Assembly (NCBI RefSeq): GCF_001625195.1
Contig: NC_054389.1
Location: 12,210,520-12,274,519, forward strand
DNA from: Drechmeria coniospora
Lineage: Eukaryota; Ascomycota; Sordariomycetes; Hypocreales; Ophiocordycipitaceae
Direction: 5' to 3'
Length of the DNA: 64,000 bases
The notes beneath the pieces are model-generated. The model was not told the DNA's origin and did not search any database. It saw only the letters and a program-made list of their open reading frames with translations. Made by a program: the position numbers and the translations under genes. This document shows, one piece after another, positions 8,548 to 49,280 of this stretch (position 1 is its first letter; every line of letters starts with the position of its first letter).

Positions 8548-8569
8548 TGATGAATCGGCAGCATCACCG

Positions 8570-27442: not shown

Positions 27443-30400
27443 TTAGGGTGTACTAGTAGGAGCAACAGTACCACTAATAGTAACCGTAGGATCTGAAGCC
27501 TCTACGCATCTTGCTCCGTCGTTATTTGTACTTGCTTGGCCAGTATTTGAAACAAGCTGAACTAGCCCATTGTTGATAACGTCAATCCGATAGATATTGC
27601 CTGAAACATTATCTTGGCCATAAAGGAAGCCATTGCTTGATCCGTAAACGGCTCCTATTTGGTTACCTCCAACGCTTCCTAGATTTTTGATTACGGACCA
27701 AGTGTGTGTCGATAAATCGAAGCGAGCGATATTTGTAGAGCTGCAAGTCGTTCCACACCCGACAGGTCCAAACCCAAAGGCGTACATTGCATTTCCAGCA
27801 CCCGAAACGTATCCTATATCACTAACATGAAATCCGGCATGCCGAGCTGTACCCGAAACAACAACGGCTCCAAAATTCGGCGATGAGCTATTCGAGAGGT
27901 CTACCTGTGCCCATAGATAGTTTGCTTCCGGTGTAGACGCTGTTGCAAGCCCCCCCAAGACAATATATTGACCATCTGTAGTAATATCCCCGCTATTAAT
28001 ATTTGTATAGGGCATTGTAATTGGTAGTGTGACGGTAATTCCACCATTACCAATACGAATAAGTTGACCTCCGCTAATTGTTCCGTAAATATAACTATCT
28101 ATTGCGTTGAATCCGATTCCGTTGATATATGATACTCCAGGAGCTACATTCCCGTTAATAAGATTTAACTGGCCCGATCCTAAATCAACTCCAAATAATT
28201 GAATCGGACTGTTAGCTGCACTACCACTTTGGATTAAGTAACCTGATACCGAACAGTCCAAAGGCGACGATGAATTGAGTATTGGTTGACTTGCGTTTAT
28301 ACATCTTGCTCCATCATTGTTAGTTGTGGTTTGGCCTGTTCTAGAAACAAGTTGCACTAGGCCATTGTTAACGACGTCTATGCGATAAATATTGCCCGAG
28401 TCATTGTCATGGCCATAAAGGAAGCCATCGTCTGATCCGTAAACGGCTCCTATCTGGTTACTTCCAACGCTTCCTAGATTTTTGATTACGGACCAAGTGT
28501 GTGTCGATAAATCGAAGCGAGCGATATTTGTAGAGCTGCAAATCGTTCCACACCCGACAGGTCCAAACCCAAAGGCGTACATTGCATTTCCAGCACCCGG
28601 AACGTATCCTATATCACTAACATGAAATCCGGCATGCCGAGCTGTACCCGAAACAACAACGGCTCCAAAATTCGGCGATGAGCTATCGGAGAGGTCAACC
28701 TGTGCCCATTGATAGTTTGCTTCCGGCGTAGACGCTGTTGCAAGCCCCCCCAAGACAATATATTGACCATCTGGAGTAATGTCACCGCTGTTACTCGATG
28801 TAAAAGGCGTATTAATACCAGTCACCTCGGATATACCACCATCCCCAATGCGAATAAGTTGACCAACGCCACTTGTTCCATATATAAAACCATCCATAAC
28901 ATTATATCCAATAGCGTTAATGGAAGTCACTCCAGGAGCAACATTTCCATTGATAAGATTTAACTGGCCCGATCCTAAATTGACACCGAATAATTGAATT
29001 GGGTCGCTAGCAGCACTGCCCTTTTGTAGTAAATAACCGGAAATAGAGCAATCCAATGGCAGTGTTCCGTTAGTAATCGGCGAAATTGCATCAATACATC
29101 TTGCTCCATCGTTATTTGTTGTTATTTGACCCGTTCTTGAAACAAGCTGAACTGGCCCGTTGGTTACGACATTGATTCTATAGATATTTCCAGATCCATT
29201 ATCTGACCCGTATAGATAGCCGTCATTCGATCCGTAAACAGCCCCAATTGAATTGCTTCCAACACTGTATAAATGTTTAAGAACACTCCATGTATGAGTT
29301 GTTAAATCGAACCGAGCAATATTGCTTGCCGAGCAGGTGGATGGGGGACCCGTACCGCACCCGACAGGTCCAAATCCAAAAGCGTACATTGCATTTCCAC
29401 CGCCTGGAACGTATCCGATATCACTTACATAAAATCCGGGATGCCGAGCTGTACCCGAAGAAACAACGGCTCCAAAATTTGACGACGAGCTATCAGAGAG
29501 GTCTATTTGTGACCATTGAAAGTTTGCCTCTGGCATATCTGTGGTTGCAATACCCCCTAAGATAATGTATTGACCATCAGGAGTAATATCGCCGCTATTG
29601 ATTGAGGTATAAGGCAAAGTAGTAGAAAGGAGTGTGGCAGTACCGCCATCACCAATACGCACAAGTTGTCCGGTACGGCTTGATCCATAAATAAAGCCAT
29701 CCTTTGCGTTATATCCTATAGCATTAATATAATTAATATCAGGAGCAACATTACCGTTTATAAGGTTCAGCTGGCCGGACGCTAAATCAACACCATAAAG
29801 CTGAATTGGATCATTCGTGTTACTGCCTTTTTGAATTAAATATCCAGATAGAGAGCAGTCCAATGGCAGTGTTTCGTTAGTAATCGGCGAAATTGCATCA
29901 ACGCATCTTGCTCCATCGTTATTTGTTGTTATTTGACCCGTTCTTGAAACAAGCTGAACTGGCCCGTTGGTTACGACATTGATTCTATAGATGTTTCCAG
30001 ATCCATTATCTGACCCGTATAGATAGCCGTCATTCGATCCGTAAACAGCCCCAATTGAATTGCTTCCAACGCTGTATAAATGTTTAAGAACACTCCATGT
30101 ATGAGTTGTTAAATCGAACCGAGCAATATTGCTTGCCGAGCAGGTGGATGGGGGACCCGTACCGCACCCAATAGGTCCAAATCCAAAGGCATACATAGCA
30201 TTTCCACCGCCTGGAACGTATCCGATATCACTAACATAAAATCCGGAATGCCGAGCTGTACCCGAAGAAATAACGGCTCCAAAATTTGGCGACGAGCTAT
30301 CAGAGAGGTCCACTTGTGACCATTGAAAGTTTGCCTCTGGCATATCCGCGGTTGCAATACCCCCTAAGATAATGTATTGACCATCAGGAGTAATATCGCC

Positions 30401-31474
30401 GCTATTGATTGAGGTATAAGGCAGAGTAGTAGAAAGGAGTGTAGCGGTACCGCCATCGCCAATACGCACAAGTTGTCCGGTACGGCTTGATCCATAAATA
30501 AAGCCATCCTTCGCGTTATATCCTATAGCATTAATATAATTAATATCAGGAGCAACATTGCCGTTTATAAGGTTCAGCTGGCCGGACGCCAAATCAACAC
30601 CATAAAGCTGAATTGGATCATTAGTATTACTGCCTTTCTGAATTAAATATCCAGACAGAGAGCAGTCCAATGGCAGTGTTTCGTTAGTAATCGGCGAAAT
30701 TGCATCAACGCATCTTGCTCCATCGTTATTTGTTGTTATTTGACCCGTTCTTGAAACAAGCTGAACTGGCCCGTTGGTTACGACATTGATTCTATAGATA
30801 TTTCCAGATCCATTATCTGACCCGTATAGATAGCCGTCATTCGATCCGTAAACAGCCCCAATTGAATTGCTTCCAACGCTGTATAAATGTTTAAGAACAC
30901 TCCATGTATGAGTTGTTAAATCGAACCGAGCAATATTGCTTGCCGAGCAGGTGGATGGGGGACCCGTACCGCACCCGATAGGTCCAAATCCAAAGGCATA
31001 CATTGCATTTCCACCGCCTGGAACGTATCCGATATCACTAACATAAAATCCGGAATGCCGAGCTGTACCCGAAGAAACAACGGCTCCAAAATTTGGCGAC
31101 GAGCTATCAGAGAGGTCCACTTGTGACCATTGAAAGTTTGCCTCTGGCATATCCGCGGTTGCAATACCCCCTAAGATAATGTATTGACCATCAGGAGTAA
31201 TATCGCCGCTATTGATTGAGGTATAAGGCAAATTAATATTAAGGAGTTGAGCGGTACCACCAGCGCCAATCCTGACTAGAGCGCCTGTATTCGTTGCTCC
31301 GTAAATATAGTTGTCTACAGCGTTGAAACCGATAGCATTAATGCGTGCTATATTCGGAGCTACATTTGCATTCAACAAATTTAACTGCCCAGATGCCAAA
31401 TCAACACCATATAGCTGGATAGGATCCGCGCTGTTGCTTCCTTGCTGAATCAAATATCCTGAAATAGAGCAATT
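27443..31474 (-). repeat. five C-terminal modules of the giant protein (807-bp units)
   Basis: Modules start at 31474, 30667, 29860, 29053 and 28258 on the minus strand. The first three spacings are exactly 807 bp and the fourth 795. Modules 1-3 (reading the protein) are nearly identical from the TSINSGDITPDGQY segment on. Modules 4 and 5 are more diverged and lack the GPPST segment after GCGT, which accounts for the shorter spacing. Confidence 0.88.
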
Positions 31475-34400
31475 AAGCCGGGGCGGTGGAACGGACGTCG
31501 CCGTAATTACAACACTAACTGTACACGGGTGAGTGCAGTCAACCGGTGGGGAAACTGTTATTGTTCCTGGTAGAGTGCCGGACACTGTTGTCGTGACAAT
31601 GATGTTGCTCGGAACAGTAATGATAATTCTGGTAGTGCATGGTTGTGTACAATCCGAGGAAGGCAGAACTGTACTTGTTCCGGGGATAGTTCCAGTCGTA
31701 ATGGTAGTTGTAGTAGCTGTATTTAGAACCTGGGTAATAATAATTCTCGTGGGGCAGTTGCCTGTACATCCGGATGAAGGCTGTACCGTACTTGTACCAG
31801 GTGTTGGACCAAATGTTGTTTCAGTAATAAGACCACCTGTAGCTGTAACAATAACAGTGGTCACACAGTTTACAGAACAGCCAGGTGGAGGCGGGATTGT
31901 GCTGGTACCAGGGGTGGGACCAAATGTAGTTTCAGTAGTAAGACCCCCAGTGGCAGTAACAATAATAGTCGTTACACAGTTGATAGTACAACTAAGCGGA
32001 GGCGGAATTGTACTAGTGCCTGCAGTTGGCCCATATGTTGTGGACGTTACAAGACCTCCTGTTAAAGTAACTATAATCTGCGTAAAGCAGTTTACAGTAC
32101 ATCCGGGGGGTGGTGGTATTGTACTAGTTCCAGCTGTCGGTCCAAAGGTGGTCGAAGTGCTGATCCCGCCAGTTGCCGTAACAATAATAGTAGTAACACA
32201 GTTAACAGTGCAGCCAGTGGGAGGTGGGATGGTGCTAGTGCCTGCTGTCGGCCCAAATGTAGTAGATGTTACAAGACCGCCTGTCAGAGTGACTATTATC
32301 TGCGTAAAGCAGTTAACAGTACATCCTGGAGTTGGTGGAATTGTACTAGTACCAGCCGTCGGTCCGAAGGTTGTCGAAGTGCTAAACCCGCCAGTTGCCG
32401 TAACAATAATGGTAGTGACACAGTTAACAGTGCAACCAGCGGGAGGTGGGATAGTGCTAGTGCCTGCTGTCGGCCCAAATGTTGTAGATGTTACAAGGCC
32501 GCCTGTCAGAGTTACTATAATCTGCGTAAAGCAGTCGACAGTGCATCCAGGAGTTGGTGGAATTGTGCTAGTACCAGCCGTCGGTCCAAAGGTTGTCGAA
32601 GTGCTAAACCCGCCAGTTGCCGTAACAATAATAGTCGTAACACAGTTTACAGTGCAACCAGCGGGAGGTGAGATTGTACTAGTGCCCGCTGTCGGCCCAA
32701 ATGTTGTAGATGTCACAAGGCCGCCTGTTAGAGTAACTATAATCTGCGTAAAGCAGTCGATAGTGCATCCAGGAGGTGGTGGGACTGTACTAGTTCCAGC
32801 CGTCGGTCCAAAGGTGGTCGAAGTGCTAAACCCGCCAGTTGCCGTAACAATAATAGTCGTAACACAGTTCACAGTGCAACCAGCGGGAGGTGAGATTGTA
32901 CTAGTGCCCGCTGTCGGCCCAAATGTTGTAGATGTCACAAGGCCGCCTGTTAGAGTAACTATAATCTGCGTAAAGCAGTCGACGGTGCATCCAGGAGGTG
33001 GTGGGACTGTACTAGTTCCAGCCGTCGGTCCAAAGGTGGTCGAAGTGCTAAACCCGCCAGTTGCCGTAACAATAATAGTCGTAACACAGTTCACAGTGCA
33101 ACCAGCGGGAGGTGGGATTGTACTAGTGCCCGCTGTCGGCCCAAATGTTGTAGATGTTACAAGGCCGCCTGTCAGAGTGACTATAATCTGCGTAAAGCAG
33201 TCGATAGTGCATCCAGGAGGTGGTGGGACTGTACTAGTTCCAGCCGTCGGTCCAAAGGTGGTCGAAGTGCTAAACCCGCCAGTTGCGGTAATAATAATTG
33301 TCGTAACACAGTTCCCAGTGCAGCCAGCGGGAGGTAGAATTGTACTAGTACCTGCTGTCGGCCCAAATGTAGTAGATGTTACAAGACCGCCTGTCAGAGT
33401 GACTATAATCTGCGTAAAGCAGTTGATGGTACATCCAGGAGGCGGAGGAATTGTGCTAGTACCAGCCGTCGGTCCAAAGGTTGTAGAAGTGCTAAACCCG
33501 CCAGTTGCTGTAACAATAATAGTGGTAACACAGTTGACAGTGCAGCTACTGGGAGGTGGGATTGTACTAGTGCCTGCTGTCGGCCCAAATGTAGTAGACG
33601 TTACAAGGCCGCCTGTCAGAGTGACTATAATCTGCGTAAAGCAGTCGACAGTACATCCAGGGGACGGTGGTATTGTGCTAGTACCAGCCGTTGGTCCAAA
33701 GGTTGTCGAAGTGCTCAACCCGCCAGTTGCCGTAACAATAATAGTAGTAACACAGTTGACAGTGCATCCTGCAGGAGGTAGGATTGTGCTAGTACCAACT
33801 GTTGGCCCAAATGTTGTAGATGTTACAAGACCGCCTGTCAGAGTGACTATAATCTGCGTAAAGCAGTCAACAGTACATCCAGGAGGTGGTGGGATTGTAC
33901 TAGTTCCAGCCGTTGGTCCAAAGGTTGTCGAAGTGCTATAACCGCCAGTTGCAGTAACAATAATAGTAGTAACACAATTCACAGTACATCCAGTGGGAGG
34001 TAGGATTGTGCTAGTTCCAGCTGTAGGCCCAAATGTACTAGACGTTACAAGACCGCCTGTCAGAGTAACTATAACCTGAGTAAAGCAGTTGACAGTACAT
34101 CCAACGGGTGGTGGGATCGTGCTTGTTCCAGCCGTCGGTCCAAAGGTTGTCGAAGTACTGAACCCACCAGTTGCAGTAACAATAATAGTAGTGACACAAT
34201 TCACAGTGCAGCCAGTGGGAGGTTGGATGGTGCTAGTCCCTGCTGTCGGCCCAAATGTAGTAGACGTTACAAGACCGCCTGTTAGAGTGACTATAATCTG
34301 AGTAAAGCAATTGACAGTACATCCAACGGGTGGTGGGATCGTGCTTGTTCCAGCCGTTGGTCCAAAGGTTGTCGAAGTGCTGAATCCTCCAGTTGCAGTA

Positions 34401-37400
34401 ACAACAACTGTAGTAACACAGTTGACAGTGCATCCTGCGGGAGGTGGGATCGTACTTGTACCAGCCGTCGGCCCAAAAGTGGTTTGAGTAATAAGACCAC
34501 CAGTAAGAGTTACAATAATTTGTGTAAAGCAGTTGGCTGTACATCCAGGTGGCGGTGGTATCGTGCTAGTGCCAGCAGTCGGTCCGAAGGTTGTTGAAGT
34601 GCTGAACCCGCCAGTTGCTGTGACAATAACAGTAGTAATACAATTGACAGTACAGCCAGCGGGAGGTGGAATTGTACTTGTACCCGCAGTTGGTCCAAAC
34701 GTTGTAGATGTTATAAGACTGCCTGTTAGAGTGACAATAATTTGCGTAAAGCAGTTAATAGTACATCCGGGTAGTGGTGGGATTGTGCTTGTTCCAGCCG
34801 TTGGTCCAAAGGTTGTAGAGGTACTGAACCCGCCTGTTGCAGTAACAACAACTGTAGTAACACAGTTGACAGTGCATCCTGTGGGAGGTGGGATCGTACT
34901 TGTACCAGCCGTCGGCCCAAAAGTAGTTTGGGTAATTAGACCACCAGTAAGGGTGACAATAATATGTGTAAGGCAGTTCACTGTACATCCTGGTGGTGGT
35001 GGTATCGTACTAGTACCAGCAGTTGGTCCAAATGTAATAGATGTGCTTAATCCACCTGTAACGGTGACAATGATTTGCGTAACGCAGTTGACCGTGCATC
35101 CAGGGGGCGGTGGAATTGTACTAGTACCCTCGGTCGGCCCAAATGTTGTAACAGTACTGAGCCCTCCAGTCGCAGTAACAATAACAGTCGTAATACAATT
35201 GACAGTGCATCCAGGAGGAGGCGGGACGGTACTAGTCCCTACCGTCGGCCCGAAAGTGGTTTGAGTAATGAGACTACCAGTAAGGGTAACGATAATTTGC
35301 GTAAAGCAGTTGACTGTGCATCCTGATGGTGGTGGTATCGTGCTAGTGCCGGCAGTTGGTCCAAATGTAATAGATGTGCTTAATCCACCTGTAACGGTGA
35401 CAATGATTTGCGTAACGCAGTTGACCGTGCATGCAGGTGGCGGTTGAATCGTGCTAGTACCCTCGGTCGGCCCAAAAGTTGTAATAGTACTAAGCCCACC
35501 CGTCGCTGTAACGATAACAGTCGTAATACAATTGATAGTGCATCCAGGAAGAGGCGGAATAGTACTTGTACCTGCCGTCGGTCCAATAGTGGTTTGGGTC
35601 ACTAGACTGCCAGTAAGGGTTACGATGATTTGCGTAAAGCAGTTGACTGTACATCCTGGTAGCGGTGGTATTATGCTTGTGCCAGCAGTTGGTCCAAATG
35701 TAATGGACGTACTAAATCCACCCGTAATTGTGACAATGATCTGCGTAATACAATTGACTGTGCATCCCGAAGATGGAGGAATTATACTTGTGCCGGCGGT
35801 CGGCCCAAAGGTAGTAATAGTACTAAGGCTGCCAGATGGAATTACAGTTATAATGACTGTTGTTGGGCAGTTCTCATTTCTTACCGCAAGGCCGTTGCGA
35901 CGCATTAAAGATGCATCAGGACATTCAGAATTCGTTGGCAGTACGGTACTTGTTCCAGCTGTTGGTCCAGTCGTGGTAATTGTAACAATATATCCGGTAG
36001 TTCCTACAGTTATAATTATTGTCGTTGCACAGTTTCCAATACAACCGGAAGAAGGCAAAATGGTACTAGTTCCATCAGTTGGACCATATGTAGTTTCGGT
36101 AATAAGACCACCGGTGGGAGTTACAGTTACAATTATTTGCGTATAGCAGTTGACCGTACATCCAGTAGGTGGCGGTATTGTGCTGGTACCAGCTGTTGGT
36201 CCGAATGTTGTCACGGTACTAAACCCACCTGTAACGGTAACAATGATCTGCGTAAAGCAGTTGACTGTACACCCAGGTGGTGGAGGAACAGTGCTTGTCC
36301 CAGCAGTCGGGCCAAAAGTTGTGACAGTACTAAATCCACCCGTCGCAGTAACAATAATAGTAGTAGGACAGAATCCTGTGCATCCACTAGAAGGTAATAG
36401 AGTACTAGTCCCAGCGGTTGGACCATATGTAGTTTCGGTAATCAGACCTCCAGTAGGGGCTACAGTTACAATTATTTGTGTGTAGCAGTTGACCGTGCAT
36501 CCAGTAGGTGGTGGTATAGTGCTAGTACCAGCTGTAGGTCCAAATGTTGTTACAGTACTAAACCCACCTGTAACGGTAACAATTATCTGCGTGATGCAGT
36601 TGACTGTACACCCAGATAGTGGAGGAACAGTGCTGGTTCCAGCCGTCGGGCCAAAAGTCGTCACGGTACTAAATCCACCAGTCTCAGTAACAATGATTGT
36701 AGTAGGACAGAATCCTGTGCATCCACTAGAAGGTAATACAGTACTAGTCCCAGCAGTTGGACCGTATGTAGTTTCGGTAATCAGACCTCCAGTAGGGGCT
36801 ACAGTTACAATTATTTGTGTGTAGCAGTTGACCGTGCATCCAGTAGGTGGTAGTATTGTGCTAGTACCAGCTGTTGGTCCGAATGTTGTCACGGTACTAA
36901 ACCCACCTGTAACGGTAACAATGATCTGCGTAAAGCAGTTGACTGTACACCCAGGTGGTGGAGGAACAGTGCTTGTCCCAGCAGTCGGGCCAAAAGTTGT
37001 GACAGTACTAAATCCACCCGTTGCAGTAACAATAATGGTAGTAGGACAGAATCCTGTGCATCCACTAGACGGTAATACAGTACTAGTCCCAGCAGTTGGA
37101 CCGTATGTAGTTTCGGTAATCAGACCTCCAGTAGGGGCTACAGTTACAATTATTTGCGTGTAGCAGTTGACCGTGCATCCAGTAGGTGGTAGTATTGTGC
37201 TAGTACCAGCTGTTGGTCCGAATGTTGTCACGGTACTAAACCCACCTGTAACGGTAACAATGATCTGCGTAAAGCAGTTGACTGTACACCCAGGTGGTGG
37301 AGGAACAGTGCTTGTCCCAGCAGTCGGGCCAAAAGTTGTGACAGTACTAAATCCACCCGTTGCAGTAACAATAATGGTAGTAGGACAGAATCCTGTGCAT

Positions 37401-40400
37401 CCACTAGACGGTAATACAGTACTAGTCCCAGCAGTTGGACCGTACGTAGTTTCGGTAATCAGACCTCCAGTAGGGGCTACAGTTACAATTATTTGTGTGT
37501 AGCAGTTGACCGTGCATCCAGTAGGTGGTAGTATTGTGCTAGTACCAGCTGTTGGTCCGAATGTTGTCACAGTACTAAACCCACCAGTAACGGTAACAAT
37601 GATCTGCGTAAAGCAGTTGACTGTACACCCAGGTGGTGGAGGAACAGTGCTTGTTCCAGCTGTCGGGCCAAAAGTTGTGACAGTACTAAATCCACCCGTT
37701 GCAGTCACAATAATTGTAGTAGGACAGAACCCTGTGCATCCACTAGAAGGTAATAGAGTACTAGTCCCAGCGGTTGGACCATATGTAGTTTCGGTAATAA
37801 GACCTCCAGTAGGGGCTACAGTTACAATTATTTGCGTATAGCAGTTGACCGTGCATCCAGTAGGTGGCAGTATTGTGCTAGTACCAGGTGTTGGTCCAAA
37901 TGTTGTCACAGTACTAAACCCACCTGTAACGGTAACAATAATGTGTGTAACGCAGTTGACCGTACACCCAGGTAGTGGAGGAACAGTGCTTGTTCCAGCC
38001 GTCGGGCCAAAAGTTGTGACAGTACTAAATCCACCCGTCGCAGTAACAATAATGGTAGTAGGACAAAATCCTGTGCATCCATTAGAAGGTAAAATGGTAC
38101 TAGTCCCAGCAGTTGGACCGTATGTAGTTTCGGTAATAAGACCTCCAGTAGGGGCTACAGTTACAATTATTTGCGTGTAGCAGTTGACCGTGCATCCAGT
38201 AGGTGGTGGTATAGTGCTGGTTCCAGCTGTAGGTCCAAATGTTGTTACAGTACTAAACCCACCTGTAACGGTAACAATGATCTGCGTGAAGCAGTTGACT
38301 GTACACCCAGGTGGTGGAGGAACAGTGCTTGTTCCAGCAGTCGGGCCAAAAGTTGTGACAGTACTAAATCCACCCGTCGCAGTAACAATGATAGTAGTAG
38401 GACAGAATCCTGTGCATCCACTAGAAGGAAATACAGTACTAGTCCCAGCGGTTGGACCGTATGTAGTTTCGGTAATAAGACCTCCAGTAGGGGTTAAAGT
38501 TACAATGATTTGTGTGTAGCAGTTGACCATGCATCCAGTAGGTGGTGGTATTGTGCTAGTGCCAGCCGTTGGTCCAAAAGTTGTTACGGTACTAAATCCA
38601 CCCGTAGCAGTAACAATAATTGTAGTAGGACAGAATCCTGTGCATGCATTAGATGGCAAAATAGTACTTGTTCCAGCAGTTGGACCGTATGTAGTCTGGG
38701 TGATATGACCTCCGGTGGGAGCAACTGTTACAATTATTTGCGTAAAGCAATCGACCGTGCATCCTGGAGGTGGTGGAATGGTGCTCGTGCCGGCAGTTGG
38801 ACCAAATGTAGTGATAGTGCTAAATCCGCCAGTAACAGTAACAATGATTTGTGTGTAACAGTTAACTGAACATCCAGATGCAGGGGGAATTGTACTAGTA
38901 CCCGCTGTAGAGCCGAACGTTGTCACAGTACTAAACCCACCAGTAACGGTAACAATAATCTGCGTAAAGCAGTTGACTGTACACCCAGGCGGTGGAGGAA
39001 CAGTGCTTGTTCCAGCAGTCGAGCCAAAAGTTGTTACAGTACTAAATCCACCCGTTGCAGTAACAATGATTGCAGTAGGACAGAATCCTGTACATCCACT
39101 AGAAGGTAATACAGTACTAGTCCCAGCGGTTGGACCGTATGTAGTTTCGGTAATAAGACCTCCAGTAGGGGATACAGTTACAATTATTTGCGTGTAGCAG
39201 TTGACTGAACACCCAGGTGGTGGAGGAACAGTGCTTGTTCCAGCAGTCGGGCCAAAAGTTGTGACAGTACTAAATCCACCCGTCGCAGTAACAATAATTG
39301 TTGTAGGACATAATCCTGTGCATCCAGTTGAAGGTAAAATGGTACTAGTCCCAGCGGTTGGACCGTACGTAGTTTCAGTAATAAGACCTCCGGTGGGAGC
39401 TACAGTTACAATTATTTGAGTATAGCAGTTGACTGTACACCCAGGTTGTGGAGGAATAGTGCTCGTTCCGGCCGTGGGACCAAATGTAGTCACAGTACTA
39501 AATCCACCCGTCGCAGTAACAATAATAGTAGTAGGACAGAATCCTGTGCATTCATTAGAAGGTAAAATGGTACTAGTCCCAGCGGTTGGACCGTATGTAG
39601 TTTCGGTAATAAGACCTCCAGTGGAAGCTACTGTTACAACTATTTGTGTAAAGCAGTCAACTGTGCACCCTTGAGGTGGTAGTATTGTGCTTGTACCAGC
39701 TGTTGGTCCGAATGTTGTTCGAGTACTAAACCCACCAGTAAGGGTAACAATGACCTGCGTAAAGCAGTTAACTGTACACCCTGGTGGAGGAGAAACAGTG
39801 CTTGTCCCAACAGTCGGGCCAAAAGTTGTAACAGTACTAAATCCACCCGTCGCAGTAACAATAATTGTAGTAGGACAGAATCCTATGCATCCAGTTGAAG
39901 GCAATATAGTACTAGTCCCAGCAGTTGGACCGTATGTAGTTTCGGTAATAATACCTCCGGTGTGAGCTATAGTTACAATAATTTGTGTATAGCAATTGAC
40001 CGTGCATCCAGTAGGTGGTGGTATAGTGCTAGTGCCAGCCGTTGGTCCAAAAGTTGTTACGGTACTAAATCCACCCGTAGCAGTAACAATAATTGTAGTA
40101 GGACAGAATCCTGTGCATGCATTAGATGGCAAAATAGTACTTGTTCCAGCAGTTGGACCGTATGTAGTCTGGGTGATATGACCTCCGGTGGGAGCAACTG
40201 TTACAATTATTTGCGTAAAGCAATCGACCGTGCATCCTGGAGGTGGTGGAATGGTGCTCGTGCCGGCAGTTGGACCAAATGTAGTGATGGTGCTAAATCC
40301 GCCAGTAACAGTGACAATGATTTGCGTGTAACAGTTAACTGAACATCCAGATGGAGGGGGAATTGTACTAGTACCCGCTGTAGGGCCAAATGTTGTAATA

Positions 40401-43400
40401 GTACTAAATCCAGTCGATATTCCTACTGTTATGATTATGGTTGTGGGACAATTACCTATACATCCGGAAGATGGCAGAATAGTACTTGTTCCTGCCGTTG
40501 GACCAGTTGTCGATTGTGTAATAACTCCCGTGGTAGCAATGGTCACTATAATCGTCGTTACACAGTTCTCATTTCTTGGTTCAAGCCCGTGGCGGCGCAT
40601 TAATGCTGCATCGGGACATTCAGAGTTTGTTGGTAATATTGTGCTTGTTCCAGCCGTTGGTCCAAACGTCGATACCGTAATAATCCCCTGTGTAATACCT
40701 ACCGTAACAATAATTGTAGTTGGGCAGTTACCAACACATCCAGATGATGGTAATATTGTGCTGGTTCCGGCTGTTGGTCCTACTGTAGATTGTGTGACGA
40801 CGCCTGTCGTCGCCTGTGTAACGATGATTTGTGTGAAGCAGTTGCTTGTACATCCGGGTGATGGTGGTATGGTGCTAGTACCAGCAGTAGGTCCAAACGT
40901 TGTTATTGTACTAAATCCGCCTGTAACGGTAACAATTATTTGCGTATAGCAGTTTTCTGTACATCCAGGTGGCGGAGGAATCGTGCTAGTGCCATGAGTG
41001 GGACCAAAGGTTGTGATAGTAGTATATCCGCTAGATGTACCTACCGTTATAATAATTGTTGTTGGGCAGTTGCCTACACATCCAGAAGATGGCAAAATTG
41101 TACTTGTCCCCGGTACTGGTCCGACCGTGGATTGTGTTATAACACCCGTAGTACCAACCGTTACTATGATCTTTGTAGGGCAGTTGCCCACACACCCAGA
41201 CGAAGCCAGGATGGTACTAGTTCCAGCCGTCGGGCCGTATGTTGATTCAATTATTAAACCAGTAGTACCGACTGTTACGATTATCCTTGTAGGGCAGTTT
41301 CCTATACAACCAGAAGAAGGTAGTATCGTGCTAGTCCCAGCTGTTGGCCCGTATGTGGATTCAGTAATAGCATTCGTAGTACCTATAGTGACGATTACTC
41401 TTGTGGGACAATAGCCAATGCATCCTGCTGAAGGTGGTATTGTACTAGTTCCAGCTGTTGGTCCGTATGTAGATTCGGTAGTTGTGCCTCCAGTCGGTCC
41501 GACGGTTACGATAATCCTTGTAGGACAATTGCCAATACATCCGGCTGAAGGCAATATCGTGCTGGTCCCGGCGGTAGGTCCAGATGTGGATTCTACGATA
41601 ACACCTGTGGTAGCCACAGTTATAATGATCCTTGTAGGACAGTCACCTACACATCCAGCAGTGGGTAAGATCGTACTGGTTCCGGCTGTCGGTCCGTATG
41701 TTGACTCAATGATTAAGCCAGTAGTGCCGACTGTAACAATAATTCTTGTGGGGCAGTTTCCTATACAACCAGAAGAAGGTAGTATCGTGCTAGTCCCAGC
41801 TGTTGGCCCGTATGTGGATTCAGTAATAGCATTCGTAGTACCTATAGTGACGATTACTCTTGTGGGACAATAGCCAATGCATCCTGCTGAAGGTGGTATT
41901 GTACTAGTTCCAGCTGTTGGTCCGTATGTAGATTCGGTAGTTGTGCCTCCAGTCGGTCCGACGGTTACGATAATCCTTGTAGGACAATTGCCAATACATC
42001 CGGCTGAAGGCAATATCGTGCTGGTCCCGGCGGTAGGTCCAGATGTGGATTCTACGATAACACCCGTGGTAGCTACAGTTATAATAATCCTTGTAGGACA
42101 GTCACCTACACATCCGGCAGTGGGTAAGATCGTACTGGTTCCGGCTGTCGGTCCGTATGTTGATTCAATGATTAAGCCAGTAGTGCCGATTGTAACAATA
42201 ATTCTCGTGGGGCAGTTACCAACACATCCGAGAGATGGTGGAATTGTACTGGTTCCGGCTGTTGGTCCGTATGTAGATTCGGTAGTTGCGCCTCCATTAG
42301 GTCCGACGGTTACGATAATCCTTGTAGGACAGTTGCCAACACATCCGGCCTCGGGTGGAATCGTGCTGATGCCAGGAATTGGTCCATACGTTACCTCTGT
42401 TATCAACCCAGCAGTTCGAGTAACGATAATTTTCGTAGGGCAGTACCCTTCACATCCAGCTAAAGGCAAAACTGTGCTTGTACCAGGTGTAGGTCCATAT
42501 GTTGATTCTGTGACAAAGCCACCGGTTTCAGTAATAATAATTATTGTCTGACAGTTCCCGGTACAGTCAACTAGAGGTGGAATAGTGCTTGTGCCGGGTG
42601 TAGGGCCAAATGTCTTTGAAGTAACATATCCTGCAGTTCGAGTAACAATAATCCGGGTGGGGCAGTAGCCAATGCAACCAGGCGGTGGCAATATTGTACT
42701 TGTGCCGGGAACTGGTCCGAAAGTTGATGCAGTAGTATAGCCGGCTGTAATGGTAATAATAATTCGAGTAGGGCAGTTGCCGATACATTCAGCAGAAGGC
42801 AGAATTGTACTTGTACCTGGCATAGGTCCATAGGTTGACTGGGTTATATGTCCACCCACTCGAGTAACAATAATTCTTGTAGGACATTTTCCTTGACAAC
42901 CAGGTGGCGGTGGTACGGTACTTGTGCCCGGTACTGGTCCATCTGTTATCTCGGTTGTAAATCCTCCTGTAGCTGTTACAATAATTCTGATGTTGCAATT
43001 TGTAGTACATCCAGCTGGCGGTAGAATTGTACTGGTACCTGGTGTTGGGCCAAATGTTGACTCGACTACAACTGTAACAATTACTCTTGTGGGGCAGCTG
43101 CCTATACATTCAGGTGGGGGTAATATTGTGCTTGTTCCTGGCACTGGCCCATCTGTTACTTCAGTCAGTATACGAGGAGTTTGCGTAATGATGATTGTTG
43201 TAGGACAATTCACGCATCCAGGGGGGGGCAGAATCAAACTGGTACCAGGCGTTGGTCCAAGTGTTGTCTCCGTAGTATAGCCACCGTTTGGCGACGATGT
43301 AGGATTAACAATAATTATCGTTCCTGTCTTAAAGGTTCCAGTCGGTACTAGTGTAATAGTCGATGTTATTAATCCCGTTCCCTTACTAGTTAGTGTTGTG

Positions 43401-43921
43401 TATGGACCAGTAAATGTCGTTTTCGGTTCGACAATTACTACTGTCCCCGTCTTATCAGTGCTGGATGGTGGTAGTGATAGCGTAATGGTATTGGTGCCTG
43501 TTCCGATGGCAGTAATGGTTGTATATGGTCCTGTGAATGTTTGCTGCGTTGTGCTCGGCTCTATTATTATAACTGTTCCGGTCTTGCCTGTTCCTATTGG
43601 ATTCAAAGATACTGTGGATGGGGCAGTACCGGTACCAATACCAGTAATTGTTGTATACGGTCCTGTGAATGTTGTCGAACCTGGATACGAAGTGTATGTC
43701 CTAATACTCGCTTTAGCATTGCCTTTATACAAGCACAGAGTTTTCTGTATATCATACCGAACATTATAGCTTTCAATTGTAGTTCCAGAGCATATTATTT
43801 GAAATGGCTGATAATCAACCACCACGGTCCCTTCATCATTGTGTATCGCTCCGTAAGTCAAGAGTATACACAACTGAAAGATGGCTAATTTTGCCAAGTT
43901 TTTTATGTTTTTTATATTCAT
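27443..43921 (-). CDS. giant secreted adhesin-like repeat protein, 5492 residues
   Basis: One uninterrupted exon from ATG at 43921. Layout: signal peptide 1-24 (KLAIFQLCILLTYG); a short unique region with two cysteines (25-82); three TFTGPYTT...GTGT...KTGTVIIIEP repeats (84-207) like those of yeast flocculin and ALS adhesins; about 100 tandem units of 37-38 residues (about 213-4140) of the form GGFSTVTTFGPTAGTSTIPP + GC-x3-C + TQIIVTVT; then five modules of about 269 residues (4150-5492). Each Thr-rich unit carries a paired cysteine (C-x3-C), probably a local disulfide. Such repeats normally form long O-glycosylated stalks. The modules (C-S-x-SGYLIQ, GVDLASGQLNL, DITPDGQY, ARFDLTTHTW, NDGARC) resemble the fungal DUF6923 propeller-like domain; this is from memory. 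There is no C-terminal GPI signal. The role is presumably adhesion or cell-surface binding. Both flanks are transposon-rich; no stop interrupts the gene. Confidence 0.85.
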   Translation of the reverse strand: MNIKNIKNLAKLAIFQLCILLTYGAIHNDEGTVVVDYQPFQIICSGTTIESYNVRYDIQKTLCLYKGNAKASIRTYTSYPGSTTFTGPYTTITGIGTGTAPSTVSLNPIGTGKTGTVIIIEPSTTQQTFTGPYTTITAIGTGTNTITLSLPPSSTDKTGTVVIVEPKTTFTGPYTTLTSKGTGLITSTITLVPTGTFKTGTIIIVNPTSSPNGGYTTETTLGPTPGTSLILPPPGCVNCPTTIIITQTPRILTEVTDGPVPGTSTILPPPECIGSCPTRVIVTVVVESTFGPTPGTSTILPPAGCTTNCNIRIIVTATGGFTTEITDGPVPGTSTVPPPPGCQGKCPTRIIVTRVGGHITQSTYGPMPGTSTILPSAECIGNCPTRIIITITAGYTTASTFGPVPGTSTILPPPGCIGYCPTRIIVTRTAGYVTSKTFGPTPGTSTIPPLVDCTGNCQTIIIITETGGFVTESTYGPTPGTSTVLPLAGCEGYCPTKIIVTRTAGLITEVTYGPIPGISTIPPEAGCVGNCPTRIIVTVGPNGGATTESTYGPTAGTSTIPPSLGCVGNCPTRIIVTIGTTGLIIESTYGPTAGTSTILPTAGCVGDCPTRIIITVATTGVIVESTSGPTAGTSTILPSAGCIGNCPTRIIVTVGPTGGTTTESTYGPTAGTSTIPPSAGCIGYCPTRVIVTIGTTNAITESTYGPTAGTSTILPSSGCIGNCPTRIIVTVGTTGLIIESTYGPTAGTSTILPTAGCVGDCPTRIIITVATTGVIVESTSGPTAGTSTILPSAGCIGNCPTRIIVTVGPTGGTTTESTYGPTAGTSTIPPSAGCIGYCPTRVIVTIGTTNAITESTYGPTAGTSTILPSSGCIGNCPTRIIVTVGTTGLIIESTYGPTAGTSTILASSGCVGNCPTKIIVTVGTTGVITQSTVGPVPGTSTILPSSGCVGNCPTTIIITVGTSSGYTTITTFGPTHGTSTIPPPPGCTENCYTQIIVTVTGGFSTITTFGPTAGTSTIPPSPGCTSNCFTQIIVTQATTGVVTQSTVGPTAGTSTILPSSGCVGNCPTTIIVTVGITQGIITVSTFGPTAGTSTILPTNSECPDAALMRRHGLEPRNENCVTTIIVTIATTGVITQSTTGPTAGTSTILPSSGCIGNCPTTIIITVGISTGFSTITTFGPTAGTSTIPPPSGCSVNCYTQIIVTVTGGFSTITTFGPTAGTSTIPPPPGCTVDCFTQIIVTVAPTGGHITQTTYGPTAGTSTILPSNACTGFCPTTIIVTATGGFSTVTTFGPTAGTSTIPPPTGCTVNCYTQIIVTIAHTGGIITETTYGPTAGTSTILPSTGCIGFCPTTIIVTATGGFSTVTTFGPTVGTSTVSPPPGCTVNCFTQVIVTLTGGFSTRTTFGPTAGTSTILPPQGCTVDCFTQIVVTVASTGGLITETTYGPTAGTSTILPSNECTGFCPTTIIVTATGGFSTVTTFGPTAGTSTIPPQPGCTVNCYTQIIVTVAPTGGLITETTYGPTAGTSTILPSTGCTGLCPTTIIVTATGGFSTVTTFGPTAGTSTVPPPPGCSVNCYTQIIVTVSPTGGLITETTYGPTAGTSTVLPSSGCTGFCPTAIIVTATGGFSTVTTFGSTAGTSTVPPPPGCTVNCFTQIIVTVTGGFSTVTTFGSTAGTSTIPPASGCSVNCYTQIIVTVTGGFSTITTFGPTAGTSTIPPPPGCTVDCFTQIIVTVAPTGGHITQTTYGPTAGTSTILPSNACTGFCPTTIIVTATGGFSTVTTFGPTAGTSTIPPPTGCMVNCYTQIIVTLTPTGGLITETTYGPTAGTSTVFPSSGCTGFCPTTIIVTATGGFSTVTTFGPTAGTSTVPPPPGCTVNCFTQIIVTVTGGFSTVTTFGPTAGTSTIPPPTGCTVNCYTQIIVTVAPTGGLITETTYGPTAGTSTILPSNGCTGFCPTTIIVTATGGFSTVTTFGPTAGTSTVPPLPGCTVNCVTHIIVTVTGGFSTVTTFGPTPGTSTILPPTGCTVNCYTQIIVTVAPTGGLITETTYGPTAGTSTLLPSSGCTGFCPTTIIVTATGGFSTVTTFGPTAGTSTVPPPPGCTVNCFTQIIVTVTGGFSTVTTFGPTAGTSTILPPTGCTVNCYTQIIVTVAPTGGLITETTYGPTAGTSTVLPSSGCTGFCPTTIIVTATGGFSTVTTFGPTAGTSTVPPPPGCTVNCFTQIIVTVTGGFSTVTTFGPTAGTSTILPPTGCTVNCYTQIIVTVAPTGGLITETTYGPTAGTSTVLPSSGCTGFCPTTIIVTATGGFSTVTTFGPTAGTSTVPPPPGCTVNCFTQIIVTVTGGFSTVTTFGPTAGTSTILPPTGCTVNCYTQIIVTVAPTGGLITETTYGPTAGTSTVLPSSGCTGFCPTTIIVTETGGFSTVTTFGPTAGTSTVPPLSGCTVNCITQIIVTVTGGFSTVTTFGPTAGTSTIPPPTGCTVNCYTQIIVTVAPTGGLITETTYGPTAGTSTLLPSSGCTGFCPTTIIVTATGGFSTVTTFGPTAGTSTVPPPPGCTVNCFTQIIVTVTGGFSTVTTFGPTAGTSTIPPPTGCTVNCYTQIIVTVTPTGGLITETTYGPTDGTSTILPSSGCIGNCATTIIITVGTTGYIVTITTTGPTAGTSTVLPTNSECPDASLMRRNGLAVRNENCPTTVIITVIPSGSLSTITTFGPTAGTSIIPPSSGCTVNCITQIIVTITGGFSTSITFGPTAGTSIIPPLPGCTVNCFTQIIVTLTGSLVTQTTIGPTAGTSTIPPLPGCTINCITTVIVTATGGLSTITTFGPTEGTSTIQPPPACTVNCVTQIIVTVTGGLSTSITFGPTAGTSTIPPPSGCTVNCFTQIIVTLTGSLITQTTFGPTVGTSTVPPPPGCTVNCITTVIVTATGGLSTVTTFGPTEGTSTIPPPPGCTVNCVTQIIVTVTGGLSTSITFGPTAGTSTIPPPPGCTVNCLTHIIVTLTGGLITQTTFGPTAGTSTIPPPTGCTVNCVTTVVVTATGGFSTSTTFGPTAGTSTIPPLPGCTINCFTQIIVTLTGSLITSTTFGPTAGTSTIPPPAGCTVNCITTVIVTATGGFSTSTTFGPTAGTSTIPPPPGCTANCFTQIIVTLTGGLITQTTFGPTAGTSTIPPPAGCTVNCVTTVVVTATGGFSTSTTFGPTAGTSTIPPPVGCTVNCFTQIIVTLTGGLVTSTTFGPTAGTSTIQPPTGCTVNCVTTIIVTATGGFSTSTTFGPTAGTSTIPPPVGCTVNCFTQVIVTLTGGLVTSSTFGPTAGTSTILPPTGCTVNCVTTIIVTATGGYSTSTTFGPTAGTSTIPPPPGCTVDCFTQIIVTLTGGLVTSTTFGPTVGTSTILPPAGCTVNCVTTIIVTATGGLSTSTTFGPTAGTSTIPPSPGCTVDCFTQIIVTLTGGLVTSTTFGPTAGTSTIPPPSSCTVNCVTTIIVTATGGFSTSTTFGPTAGTSTIPPPPGCTINCFTQIIVTLTGGLVTSTTFGPTAGTSTILPPAGCTGNCVTTIIITATGGFSTSTTFGPTAGTSTVPPPPGCTIDCFTQIIVTLTGGLVTSTTFGPTAGTSTIPPPAGCTVNCVTTIIVTATGGFSTSTTFGPTAGTSTVPPPPGCTVDCFTQIIVTLTGGLVTSTTFGPTAGTSTISPPAGCTVNCVTTIIVTATGGFSTSTTFGPTAGTSTVPPPPGCTIDCFTQIIVTLTGGLVTSTTFGPTAGTSTISPPAGCTVNCVTTIIVTATGGFSTSTTFGPTAGTSTIPPTPGCTVDCFTQIIVTLTGGLVTSTTFGPTAGTSTIPPPAGCTVNCVTTIIVTATGGFSTSTTFGPTAGTSTIPPTPGCTVNCFTQIIVTLTGGLVTSTTFGPTAGTSTIPPPTGCTVNCVTTIIVTATGGISTSTTFGPTAGTSTIPPPPGCTVNCFTQIIVTLTGGLVTSTTYGPTAGTSTIPPPLSCTINCVTTIIVTATGGLTTETTFGPTPGTSTIPPPPGCSVNCVTTVIVTATGGLITETTFGPTPGTSTVQPSSGCTGNCPTRIIITQVLNTATTTTITTGTIPGTSTVLPSSDCTQPCTTRIIITVPSNIIVTTTVSGTLPGTITVSPPVDCTHPCTVSVVITATSVPPPRLNCSISGYLIQQGSNSADPIQLYGVDLASGQLNLLNANVAPNIARINAIGFNAVDNYIYGATNTGALVRIGAGGTAQLLNINLPYTSINSGDITPDGQYIILGGIATADMPEANFQWSQVDLSDSSSPNFGAVVSSGTARHSGFYVSDIGYVPGGGNAMYAFGFGPIGCGTGPPSTCSASNIARFDLTTHTWSVLKHLYSVGSNSIGAVYGSNDGYLYGSDNGSGNIYRINVVTNGPVQLVSRTGQITTNNDGARCVDAISPITNETLPLDCSLSGYLIQKGSNTNDPIQLYGVDLASGQLNLINGNVAPDINYINAIGYNAKDGFIYGSSRTGQLVRIGDGGTATLLSTTLPYTSINSGDITPDGQYIILGGIATADMPEANFQWSQVDLSDSSSPNFGAVISSGTARHSGFYVSDIGYVPGGGNAMYAFGFGPIGCGTGPPSTCSASNIARFDLTTHTWSVLKHLYSVGSNSIGAVYGSNDGYLYGSDNGSGNIYRINVVTNGPVQLVSRTGQITTNNDGARCVDAISPITNETLPLDCSLSGYLIQKGSNTNDPIQLYGVDLASGQLNLINGNVAPDINYINAIGYNAKDGFIYGSSRTGQLVRIGDGGTATLLSTTLPYTSINSGDITPDGQYIILGGIATTDMPEANFQWSQIDLSDSSSSNFGAVVSSGTARHPGFYVSDIGYVPGGGNAMYAFGFGPVGCGTGPPSTCSASNIARFDLTTHTWSVLKHLYSVGSNSIGAVYGSNDGYLYGSDNGSGNIYRINVVTNGPVQLVSRTGQITTNNDGARCIDAISPITNGTLPLDCSISGYLLQKGSAASDPIQLFGVNLGSGQLNLINGNVAPGVTSINAIGYNVMDGFIYGTSGVGQLIRIGDGGISEVTGINTPFTSSNSGDITPDGQYIVLGGLATASTPEANYQWAQVDLSDSSSPNFGAVVVSGTARHAGFHVSDIGYVPGAGNAMYAFGFGPVGCGTICSSTNIARFDLSTHTWSVIKNLGSVGSNQIGAVYGSDDGFLYGHDNDSGNIYRIDVVNNGLVQLVSRTGQTTTNNDGARCINASQPILNSSSPLDCSVSGYLIQSGSAANSPIQLFGVDLGSGQLNLINGNVAPGVSYINGIGFNAIDSYIYGTISGGQLIRIGNGGITVTLPITMPYTNINSGDITTDGQYIVLGGLATASTPEANYLWAQVDLSNSSSPNFGAVVVSGTARHAGFHVSDIGYVSGAGNAMYAFGFGPVGCGTTCSSTNIARFDLSTHTWSVIKNLGSVGGNQIGAVYGSSNGFLYGQDNVSGNIYRIDVINNGLVQLVSNTGQASTNNDGARCVEASDPTVTISGTVAPTSTP
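31500..43285 (-). repeat. Thr-rich two-cysteine repeat array of the giant protein
   Basis: About 100 units of 111-114 bp. Higher-order blocks stand out: a 222-bp (two-unit) period at about 32060-33960, a 339-bp (three-unit) period at 36150-38520 with seven near-identical copies, a 459-bp (four-unit) pair at 41418 and 41877, and a segment of about 350 bp at 38510 repeated at 39962. The opposite strand is also open over long parts because of the codon pattern. Confidence 0.88.
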
Positions 43922-47644: not shown

Positions 47645-49280
47645 TGTCTCACGTAACTCGGAATGCCCGGGGCTTTTGCTCCGAATGCTTGGATCAAGGA
47701 CTAAAACTTAGTTGCGCGGGCCTGATGGATGCGGGGGGTTGGTTAGCAGGATTAGCGCTTTAATCTGCAAACCACCATAACAGATCAAGGAAACCCACAA
47801 ACTCCTTCTACTCGGTAGGATTATCCAGGACAATAGAATAGGTGTCTCCTTCCACCGGATTAGGATCCTCCAAAAACCGATTTTCTGACGGTAACTCGGG
47901 ATGCCCGGGGCTTTTGCTCCGAATGCTTGGATCAAGGACTAAAACTTAGTTGCGCGGGCCTGATGGATGCGGGGGGTTGGTTAGTAGGATTAGCGCTTTA
48001 ATCTGCAAACCACCATAACAGATCAAGGAAACCTACACTCCTTCTACTCGGTAGGATTATCCAGGACAATAGAGTAGGTGTTTCCTTCCACCGGACTTGG
48101 ATCCTTCAAAAGCCAATTTTCCGACGGTGACCTGGGGCTTTTGCTCCGAAAGCTTGGGTCAAGGACTAAAACTTAGTTGCGCGGACTTAGTGGATGCAGG
48201 GGGTTGGTTAGCAGGATTAGCGTTTTAATCTGCAAACCACCATAACAGATCAAGGAAACCCACAAACTCCTTCTACTCGGTAGGATTATCCAGGACAATA
48301 GAATAGGTGTCTCCTTCCACCGGATTAGGATCCTTCAAAAACCGATTTTCCGACGGTAACTCGGGATGCCTGGGGCGTTTGCTCCGAAAGCTTGGGTCAA
48401 GGACTAAAACTTAGTTGCGCGGACTTAGTGGATGCAGGGGGTTGGTTAGCAGGATTAGCGTTTTAATCTGCAAACCACCATAACAGATCAAGGAAACCCA
48501 CAAACTCCTTCTACTCGGTAGGATTATCCAGGACAATAGAATAGGTGTCTCCTTCCACCGGATTAGGATCCTTCAAAAACCGATTTTCCGACGGTAACTC
48601 GGGATGCCTGGGGCGTTTGCTCCGAAAGCTTGGGTCAAGGACTAAAACTTAGTTGCGCGGACTTAGTGGATGCAGGGGGTTGGTTAGCAGGATTAGCGTT
48701 TTAATCTGCAAACCACCATAACAGATCAAGGAAACCCACAAACTCCTTCTACTCGGTAGGATTATCCAGGACAATAGAATAGGTGTCTCCTTCCACCGGA
48801 TTAGGATCCTTCAAAAACCGATTTTCCGACGGTAACTCGGGATGCCTGGGGCGTTTGCTCTGAAAGCTTGGATCAAGAACTAAAACTTAGTTGCGCGGGC
48901 TTAATAGATGCAGGGGGTTGGTTAGTAGGATTAGCGCTTTGATCTGCAAACCACTACAACAGATCAAGGAAACCCACAAACTCCTTCTACTCGGTAGGGT
49001 TATCCAGGACAATAGAATAGGTGTTTCCTTCTACCGGATTTGGATCCATCAAAAACCGATTTTCCGACGGTGACTTGGGATGCGGGGTTTTTGCTCCACA
49101 AAAATGGATTAAGGACTTAAAATTTGCTATAGTGGATGCGGAGGGTGGGTTGGGGGGATTTGCGCTTTGATCTTGAACTACTACAACATTTAAAGGAAAC
49201 CCGCAAACTCCTTCTACTCAATCGGTTTATCTAGGACAATACATATTACCTATCCATCCAAACCACCCTCTCCGCTAGAC
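47645..49280. repeat. 238-bp satellite, seven copies
   Basis: Landmark GTAACTCGGGATGCC-type heads lie at 47654, 47891, 48127, 48356, 48594, 48832 and 49070. Steps are 237, 236, 229, 238, 238 and 238. Each unit includes CAAGGACTAAAACTTAGTTG, GGTTGGTTAG(C/T)AGGATTAGCG, CCTTCTACTCGGTAGG and ATTATCCAGGACAATAGAAT. The copies at 48356 and 48594 look identical; the first and last are the most diverged. Confidence 0.88.

What the first reader, a model, noticed from the sequence alone, without database searches (positions are those of the whole stretch)
27443..43921. Intact 16.5-kb intronless adhesin-like gene inside a RIP-damaged retroelement zone
Every retroelement gene around it is broken by stops at Gln or Trp codons. 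Yet this gene, itself made of about 100 tandem repeats and five 0.8-kb repeats that should attract RIP, has 5492 open codons. Either it is under strong selection, or it arose or expanded after RIP last acted, or tandem repeats here escape RIP. The protein has a signal peptide, flocculin-like TFTGPYTT repeats, a long two-cysteine Thr stalk and five C-terminal modules.
Basis: partly seen in the sequence, partly recalled or inferred. Interest (0 to 1): 0.82.

Follow-up and report, generated by a model that had tools for sequence, protein, structure and literature searches.

The report
Giant spore-adhesin-like gene with relatives
A worm-killing fungus carries a huge intact gene, one of a few dozen relatives found mostly near its chromosome ends that share a long repeat stalk but end in different binding-type heads, and its repeats look untouched by the mutation system that wrecked a nearby mobile element.

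Summary
The frame is real: 27443-43921 (-), 5492 codons, 104 two-cysteine Thr-rich units, five C-terminal modules. The modules are DUF6923 (320 bits), predicted beta-propellers. The genome is Drechmeria coniospora, an endoparasite of nematodes. The gene is probably not intronless: 9 of 10 sibling N-termini need a short intron at one site, and the window copy's 57-nt version happens to stay open. It is no singleton: 33 related loci have open frames of 2000 codons or more, 25 within 600 kb of a chromosome end. Siblings share N-terminus and stalk but end in GLEYA/PA14, DUF5648, Gly-rich or unassigned tips; tip type does not follow N-terminal ancestry. Fission-yeast C-terminal-tip adhesins are the nearest precedent. 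RIP: the neighbouring retroelement is heavily hit (7 of 66 copy pairs: 121-161 transitions, no transversion); the gene's internal repeats, about as old or older by transversions, lack that signature and show dN/dS 0.10-0.25. Expansion after the last RIP is thus disfavoured; escape or purging remains. Expression, anchoring and binding are untested.

The parts
43758..43921 (-). Exon 1: signal-peptide-like N-terminus plus a short conserved domain (GTVVVDYQPFQIICSGTTIESYNVR)
   Evidence: coordinates derived from the splice sites printed
43701..43757 (-). Predicted 57-nt phase-2 intron (donor GTATGA, branch-like CTAA, acceptor TATTAG) that reads open by chance
   Evidence: same site in 9 of 10 siblings, which need it to be removed; no RNA evidence
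27443..43700 (-). Exon 2: ALS-like repeats, stalk, five tip modules and stop
43259..43672 (-). Three TFTGPYTT repeats resembling Candida_ALS (PF05792), below that model's cut-off
31478..43258 (-). Stalk: 104 tandem Thr/Pro/Gly-rich units of mostly 37-39 aa, two Cys each
   Evidence: dN/dS median 0.12 among 37-aa units
30668..31474 (-). DUF6923 module 1
   Evidence: (five stretches, E 1.1e-95)
29861..30667 (-). DUF6923 module 2
29054..29860 (-). DUF6923 module 3 (96.4% identical in DNA to module 2)
28259..29053 (-). DUF6923 module 4, predicted beta-propeller
27446..28258 (-). DUF6923 module 5 and a short tail with no hydrophobic (GPI-type) end
58858..59334 (+). Reverse-transcriptase domain of a retroelement with 3 TAG and 1 TAA; contrast case for RIP
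47653..49241 (.). Noncoding 238-bp tandem array (6.8 copies; 6 whole copies compared), second test case: no CpA excess

Best explanation
The gene is an intact, selectively maintained member of a family of giant secreted cell-surface proteins of Drechmeria coniospora that most likely act as adhesins of the conidium. Shown by sequence: a common N-terminus, ALS-like repeats and a long Thr-rich stalk with two cysteines per unit, followed at the C-terminus by a tip that differs between members; here the tip is five predicted beta-propellers (DUF6923), while siblings carry GLEYA/PA14 lectin-type or other domains, and one sibling carries DUF6923 and GLEYA together. Inferred: the signal peptide exports the protein, the Thr-rich units are O-glycosylated and disulphide-pinned into a rod that could reach of the order of a micrometre, the N-terminal part and ALS-like repeats hold it in the wall without a GPI anchor, and the multivalent C-terminal propellers bind ligands on the nematode cuticle or hold spore mucilage together. 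New tips were probably acquired by recombination between family members. The internal repeats were not mutated by RIP although RIP hit neighbouring elements at a time when most of these repeats already existed.
Against: No transcript or protein evidence for this locus. PMC4792172 says none of its 10 ALS-type genes was highly transcribed; some may be of this family. No ligand is known for DUF6923; propellers serve many roles. No protein of 3020-9611 aa matched the tail among 1060 scored database candidates, so the model may be missing or split in the public annotation. The stalk model is poor (pLDDT 61). A Metarhizium protein of 534 aa that aligns over 96% of the two-module query has no room for such a stalk (P0005), so the domain also occurs without one. 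Only 11 N-termini were compared, whole sibling genes were not fetched, and each tip was tied to its N-terminus by the reported open frames and coordinates.
Confidence: 0.68

Rival explanations
1. Structural spore mucin: the protein is a secreted, heavily glycosylated matrix protein of the adhesive bud or spore coat; length and stickiness matter, and the tips only cross-link the matrix rather than recognise a host ligand.
For: No GPI-type tail in the printed end; stalk is 26.6% Thr; tips differ between siblings without following N-terminal ancestry.
Against: 11 of 18 sibling tips examined match GLEYA/PA14, a lectin fold used for specific binding in yeast adhesins (PMC8621652 passages); modules are conserved (dN/dS 0.10-0.25).
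Confidence: 0.17
2. Mostly silent subtelomeric reservoir: members are rarely expressed and recombine to make new tip-stalk combinations, in the manner of variable surface-protein families.
For: 25 of 33 loci within 600 kb of chromosome ends; tips do not follow N-terminal ancestry; a truncated near-copy of this gene's tail lies about 92 kb further on (L066; 92.3% identity over 1.36 kb).
Against: Selection on modules, stalk and N-terminus argues that the products are used; no expression data either way.
Confidence: 0.1
3. Assembly artefact or non-gene: a collapsed or inflated repeat array whose open frame means little.
For: Repeat arrays of this kind are hard to assemble; internal blocks reach 99% identity over 600 bp.
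Against: dN/dS well below 1, conserved splice site, 32 other long open relatives at other loci; the assembly combined PacBio, 454, Solexa and optical maps (PMC4792172 passage). The exact number of units could still be wrong.
Confidence: 0.03
4. RIP reading: the gene is intact simply because its repeats arose after RIP last acted in the lineage.
For: Modules 2/3 and some stalk blocks are young (96-99% identical); module 2/3 transversions per site (0.0037) lie inside the range of all element pairs (median 0.0031, maximum 0.0056).
Against: Against the 7 of 66 element pairs with RIP and no transversion, all seven within-gene duplicates tested have more transversions, and m1/m2 and m4/m5 far more. 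Caveat: gene conversion within the array could hide past damage.
Confidence: 0.15

Closest known systems
Fission-yeast adhesin family of Linder and Gustafsson 2008 (C-terminal GLEYA or DIPSY; Map4, Mam3)
   Same: Signal peptide, Ser/Thr-rich repeats first, ligand-type domain at the C-terminus, no GPI signal (PMC6023273 section 12; PMC13147542 passage; the original paper was not read).
   Different: Here the units carry two Cys each, frames reach 5000-6900 codons, the tips include DUF6923 propellers, DUF5648 and Gly-rich domains, and the window gene itself has no GLEYA or DIPSY row in the Pfam scan.
PA14/GLEYA-type Flo and Epa adhesins of yeasts
   Same: Lectin-type domain plus long Thr/Ser repeat stalk in siblings (PMC8621652 passages).
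   Different: Opposite order (tip at the C-terminus), no GPI-type end in the window gene, no PF00624 row listed; the window gene has no PA14/GLEYA row.
Candida ALS proteins (PF05792 repeats)
   Same: N-terminal TFTGPYTT repeats resemble the ALS repeat; above cut-off in sibling L063.
   Different: Window repeats score below the cut-off (17.1 against 25 bits); the stalk units and tips have no ALS row in the scans.
Other fungal proteins with DUF6923 (e.g. Monosporascus P0002, P0020, Colletotrichum P0022, Aureobasidium P0023, Metarhizium P0005)
   Same: DUF6923 by Pfam (P0002 by alignment only), in some with ALS repeats or GLEYA/PA14 in the same protein.
   Different: 324-1022 aa, so no stalk of this size; but the search admits only proteins of similar length to the query, so giant relatives elsewhere are not excluded.

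Membership tests
DUF6923 (PF21959) | Match over the curated cut-off | tested here: met
   320.3 bits against 27, five stretches
DUF6923 (PF21959) | Beta-propeller fold (property inferred here, not part of the Pfam definition) | tested here: met
Drechmeria common-stalk family (defined here) | Shared N-terminus and two-Cys Thr-rich stalk | tested here: met
   N-terminal and stalk searches of the own genome, alignment of 11 N-termini
Drechmeria common-stalk family (defined here) | Conserved short intron after exon 1 | tested here: met
   Sequence signals at the same site in 10 of 11 N-termini including the window; needed by 9 of 10 siblings; no RNA evidence
Fission-yeast C-terminal-tip adhesins | C-terminal GLEYA or DIPSY domain | tested here: not met
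   No such row for the window gene's tail; GLEYA is met in 11 of 18 siblings
Fission-yeast C-terminal-tip adhesins | Ser/Thr-rich repeats before the tip, no GPI signal | tested here: met
   GPI judged by eye on the printed tail, no predictor
PA14/GLEYA Flo adhesins | N-terminal PA14 or GLEYA domain | tested here: not met
Candida ALS repeat (PF05792) | Match over cut-off | tested here: not met
   E 0.0079, 17.1 bits against 25 in the window; 37 bits in sibling L063
Adhesin (function) | Surface location and binding to host | not testable with these tools
   No expression, localisation or binding data
RIP target | Transition-only, CpA-biased differences between repeat copies | tested here: not met
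   m1/m2 35 ts:46 tv, m4/m5 64:66; m2/m3 26:3, with CpA-type 9 of 24 contexted and 4 of 16 polarised C>T/G>A changes at CpA/TpG. The three pairs together: CpA 33 of 93. The neighbouring element: 1787:61, CpA 941 of 1532
Signal peptide | Cleavable N-terminal signal | tested here: inconclusive
   Read by eye; no predictor available

The most novel reading that the evidence does not exclude
Drechmeria keeps a largely subtelomeric, mix-and-match adhesin system: about thirty giant genes with one exchangeable anchor-and-stalk part and many swappable C-terminal binding heads (propellers, lectin-type, DUF5648, Gly-rich), reshuffled by recombination and somehow shielded from a genome defence that mutates other repeats. 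It would be the molecular kit for docking spores on nematodes, and DUF6923 would be a new adhesive head.
Probability: 0.33. Interest if true: 0.82.

Novelty: new variant of a known kind. Interest (0 to 1): 0.64.

Why it matters
Spore adhesion to the cuticle is the first step of infection in a standard C. elegans pathogen model, and in the papers seen its molecules are only listed as candidates. A family of some thirty giant genes with one stalk and several tips gives a concrete candidate set, gives the uncharacterised domains DUF6923 and DUF5648 a plausible surface role, and may explain why the published accounts report separate 'GLEYA' and 'ALS' expansions. The RIP contrast is a second, separately testable question: how long, near-identical coding repeats survive in a genome where RIP has recently rewritten transposons next door.

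Tried and rejected
Rejected: (a) the RIP index as evidence of RIP in the stalk: synonymous shuffles reproduce and exceed it. (b) RIP as cause of the module 2/3 transition excess (26 ts:3 tv): polarised with modules 1 and 4, 16 are C>T or G>A, 4 of them at CpA/TpG and 8 of the other 12 at CpG (counted by hand); unpolarised, 9 of 24 contexted transitions are CpA-type. (c) Weak Pfam rows on stalk and tail (DAZAP2, NUP210_Ig, Kelch_1, GFP, mTERF, Spectrin_2, DUF3732): 0 passing stretches, taken as repeat-driven noise. (d) PDB sequence search of the tail: two chance-level rows. (e) Foldseek TM values near 0.5 are modest; the propeller class is taken from the second aligner, and no blade number is claimed. 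(f) The stalk model is too weak to use. (g) Pfam on 20 flanking frames gave only HSP20 and HsbA above cut-off; the retroelement's other genes were not annotated. (i) The truncated near-copy L066 shows a mild CpA-type bias (20 against 8) with 68 ts:28 tv, too weak to call RIP; its two in-frame stops inside the module region stand where the window gene has Gln, and its frame shifts later. (j) The scan of L022's whole 737 aa listed no DUF6923, while a genome profile search (63.1 bits) and a scan of its C-terminal 337 aa (61.9 bits) do; I follow the latter two.

Limits of counts: family loci were tallied by hand; the lists of 26 and 27 are cut ('more matches are not listed') and the searches score only the best candidates, so 33 is a lower bound and a hand-made list (typed into); open-frame lengths are the tool's. 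Members with shorter or broken frames (e.g. L009, 1390 codons) are not in the 33. The TE statistics sum pairs that share copies, so P values are indicative; 12 element copies (window plus 11) out of 40 listed matches were used. In one search, 30 of 98 RVT_1 rows have no stop and TGA occurs in 2 of 98 (counted by hand). The hit fraction behind the 62-75 expected stops counts a change in either element copy and so overstates one copy. In one search, 1480 of the 2211 unit pairs gave a usable ratio. 'Not described in print' rests over an open-access library; Ji et al. 2020 is not held and supplements could not be read. A search on RIP and tandem repeats was seen as a listing only. Papers: PMC4792172 passages and section 14; PMC4859500 passages and section 8; PMC10512298, PMC8621652 and PMC13147542 passages; PMC6023273 passages and section 12; the rest were seen as search listings. 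RIP rules for Neurospora and the residue-length estimate behind 'a micrometre' are recalled.

Full report
WHAT IS THERE. The minus-strand frame 27443-43921 is open for 5492 codons; the other two frames of that strand hold 252 and 256 stops. The protein has a Lys-plus-hydrophobic start, a short conserved domain, three TFTGPYTT repeats, 104 tandem units with 208 cysteines (67 units are exactly 37 aa), and five C-terminal modules. The printed end has no hydrophobic GPI-type tail.

WHICH ORGANISM. The genome is 32.8 Mb with C1, C2, C3 of 12.54, 10.20 and 9.75 Mb. The finished Drechmeria coniospora genome has three chromosomes of 12.5, 10.2 and 9.8 Mb, active RIP, and retrotransposons enriched in centromeres and chromosome ends (PMC4792172 passages). 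Two proteins named DCS_03341 and DCS_08298 of D. coniospora come from contigs of 10,204,147 and 8,632 bases, the exact lengths of C2 and C10. The window lies about 0.27-0.33 Mb from the end of chromosome 1.

PROBABLY NOT INTRONLESS. Aligning the N-termini of the window gene and ten siblings shows a donor, a branch-like CTAA and an acceptor at one site. In seven siblings the stretch is not a multiple of three and in two it holds a stop, so nine of ten need its removal; the spliced frame is open in 10 of 11, the eleventh (L040) having no donor of the pattern used and reading open as it is. In the window the stretch is 57 nt without a stop, so the raw frame runs through it. The spliced product would be 5473 aa.

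A FAMILY WITH DIFFERING TIPS. DUF6923 has 37 matches in the genome; the N-terminus and a stalk piece find many more long open frames. From these lists I tallied 33 loci with frames of at least 2000 codons, 25 of at least 3000; the longest is 6916 (C3:585-603 kb). Twenty-five of 33 lie within 600 kb of a chromosome end, a space that is 11% of the chromosomes. The ends of 17 siblings were fetched and L009 was at hand. Pfam finds GLEYA/PA14 in 11 of these 18 (L009, L051, L052, L054, L056, L057, L058, L061, L062, L063, L065) and six DUF5648 stretches in L049. L009 holds DUF6923 and GLEYA in one frame, though its frame is only 1390 codons and the stretch upstream is interrupted. By reading, L053, L055 and L060 end in Gly-rich domains; L050 and L059 are unassigned, and L064 missed the end of its gene. 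On a tree of 11 N-termini, tip class needs 5 changes against a shuffled mean of 5.5 (89 of 200 shuffles as low), and the sister pair L041/L047 (100/100) has different tips: tips do not follow N-terminal ancestry. A short, interior relative (L022, C1:6.17 Mb, 804-codon frame) has a similar N-terminal stretch by reading, several stalk-like units and one DUF6923 (61.9 bits), and may resemble the ancestral form.

SELECTION. NG86 dN/dS between modules is 0.105-0.251 with dS 0.113-1.747; among 37-aa units the median is 0.12 over 1480 usable of 2211 pairs; among N-termini of paralogues 0.284 over 45 pairs, maximum 0.61.

RIP. The element near 58.4-60.2 kb has 40 listed copies. Against 11 of them it shows 1787 transitions to 61 transversions, 941 of 1532 contexted transitions at CpA. 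Genome-wide, 68 of 98 RVT_1 rows have stops, nearly all TAG or TAA, TGA in 2 rows. The gene's module pairs m1/m2 and m4/m5 have as many transversions as transitions (35:46, 64:66); m2/m3 (26:3) is transition-rich, but only 4 of 16 polarised C>T/G>A changes are at CpA/TpG. Over these three pairs CpA makes up 33 of 93 contexted transitions. If CpA sites had been hit as between element copies, 62-75 of the 131 stop-capable sites would be expected to be stops (the hit fraction counts either copy, so it overstates one copy). Timing: 7 of 66 element pairs have 121-161 transitions and no transversion in 1801 sites, so that RIP is very recent; the within-gene duplicates have 0.0037 to 0.085 transversions per site; over all element pairs the median is 0.0031 and the maximum 0.0056. 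Most of the gene's repeats therefore appear older than this RIP, the youngest about as old. Either RIP passes over them, or hit alleles were lost, or gene conversion within the array cleaned them. A noncoding 238-bp tandem array nearby has 171 ts:30 tv with CpA at 49 of 160, which favours a general leniency towards tandem arrays, weakly. A truncated copy of the gene's tail at C1:12.347 Mb has two stops where the window gene has Gln, a shifted end and a mild CpA-type bias of 20 to 8.

HOW IT PROBABLY WORKS. The order of parts (export signal, wall-side repeats, very long Thr-rich stalk with two Cys per unit, multivalent C-terminal heads, no GPI) matches the fission-yeast adhesins whose C-terminal domain is exposed at the wall surface (PMC6023273 section 12; PMC13147542 passage), not the yeast Flo/Epa order with an N-terminal head and GPI end (PMC8621652 passages). 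D. coniospora infects through conidia that stick by an adhesive bud (PMC4859500 passages). I infer a spore-surface fibre whose propeller heads bind the nematode cuticle or the spore matrix. Export, glycosylation, disulphides, anchoring, expression and binding are all untested.

WHAT IS KNOWN. The genome papers report expansion of GLEYA and ALS-type proteins and name DCS_00041 as expressed in conidiation and infection, while none of the ten ALS genes was highly transcribed (PMC4792172 section 14). None of the passages and sections seen describes a common-stalk family with DUF6923, DUF5648 and Gly-rich tips. I rate it a new variant of a known kind.

Noticed in passing
window 7416-8600 (-): Frame matching HsbA, hydrophobic surface binding protein A (37.7 bits, cut-off 33.5), another adhesion-linked family noted in D. 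coniospora.
   Followed up: no
window 11309-12592 (+): Frame with an HSP20/alpha-crystallin domain at its C-terminal end.
   Followed up: no
window 1-22000 versus 22001-64000: Sharp compositional step: left part mostly 0.55-0.70 G+C and rich in short tandem repeats, right part mostly 0.34-0.53.
   Followed up: no
L066 (C1:12343500-12350500): Truncated, frame-broken near-copy of the window gene's tail about 92 kb further along the chromosome, on the opposite strand.
   Followed up: partly
L009 (C3:9735218-9738913): Family-type frame that carries both DUF6923 and GLEYA/PA14, with the stretch upstream interrupted.
   Followed up: partly
C3:585-603 kb (L020): Relative with a 6916-codon open frame, longer than the window gene, ending in DUF6923.
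   Followed up: no
C2:5142624-5143277 (-) and C2:5148139-5148792 (+): Two stalk-bearing frames (2302 and 2101 codons) in inverted orientation about 5 kb apart with identical scores, mid-chromosome: looks like an inverted duplication.
   Followed up: no
C10 (8632 bases) and C2:9432-9438 kb: The small contig C10 carries DUF6923 stretches whose readings overlap those of C2:9.43 Mb, perhaps an allelic or unplaced copy.
   Followed up: no
C3:148.8 kb (+) and C3:151.6 kb (-): Two giant family members (3838 and 3968 codons) arranged tail to tail.
   Followed up: no
window 21936-22118, 50842-51019, 53689-53878, 54932-55112: Four copies of a roughly 180-190 bp dispersed repeat (83-84% identical to a stretch of L066) around the gene.
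   Followed up: no
genome-wide, e.g. C2:1876384, C1:3199331: Some reverse-transcriptase frames of over 1000 codons show no stop in the matched stretch, so not every retroelement in this genome has been broken.
   Followed up: no
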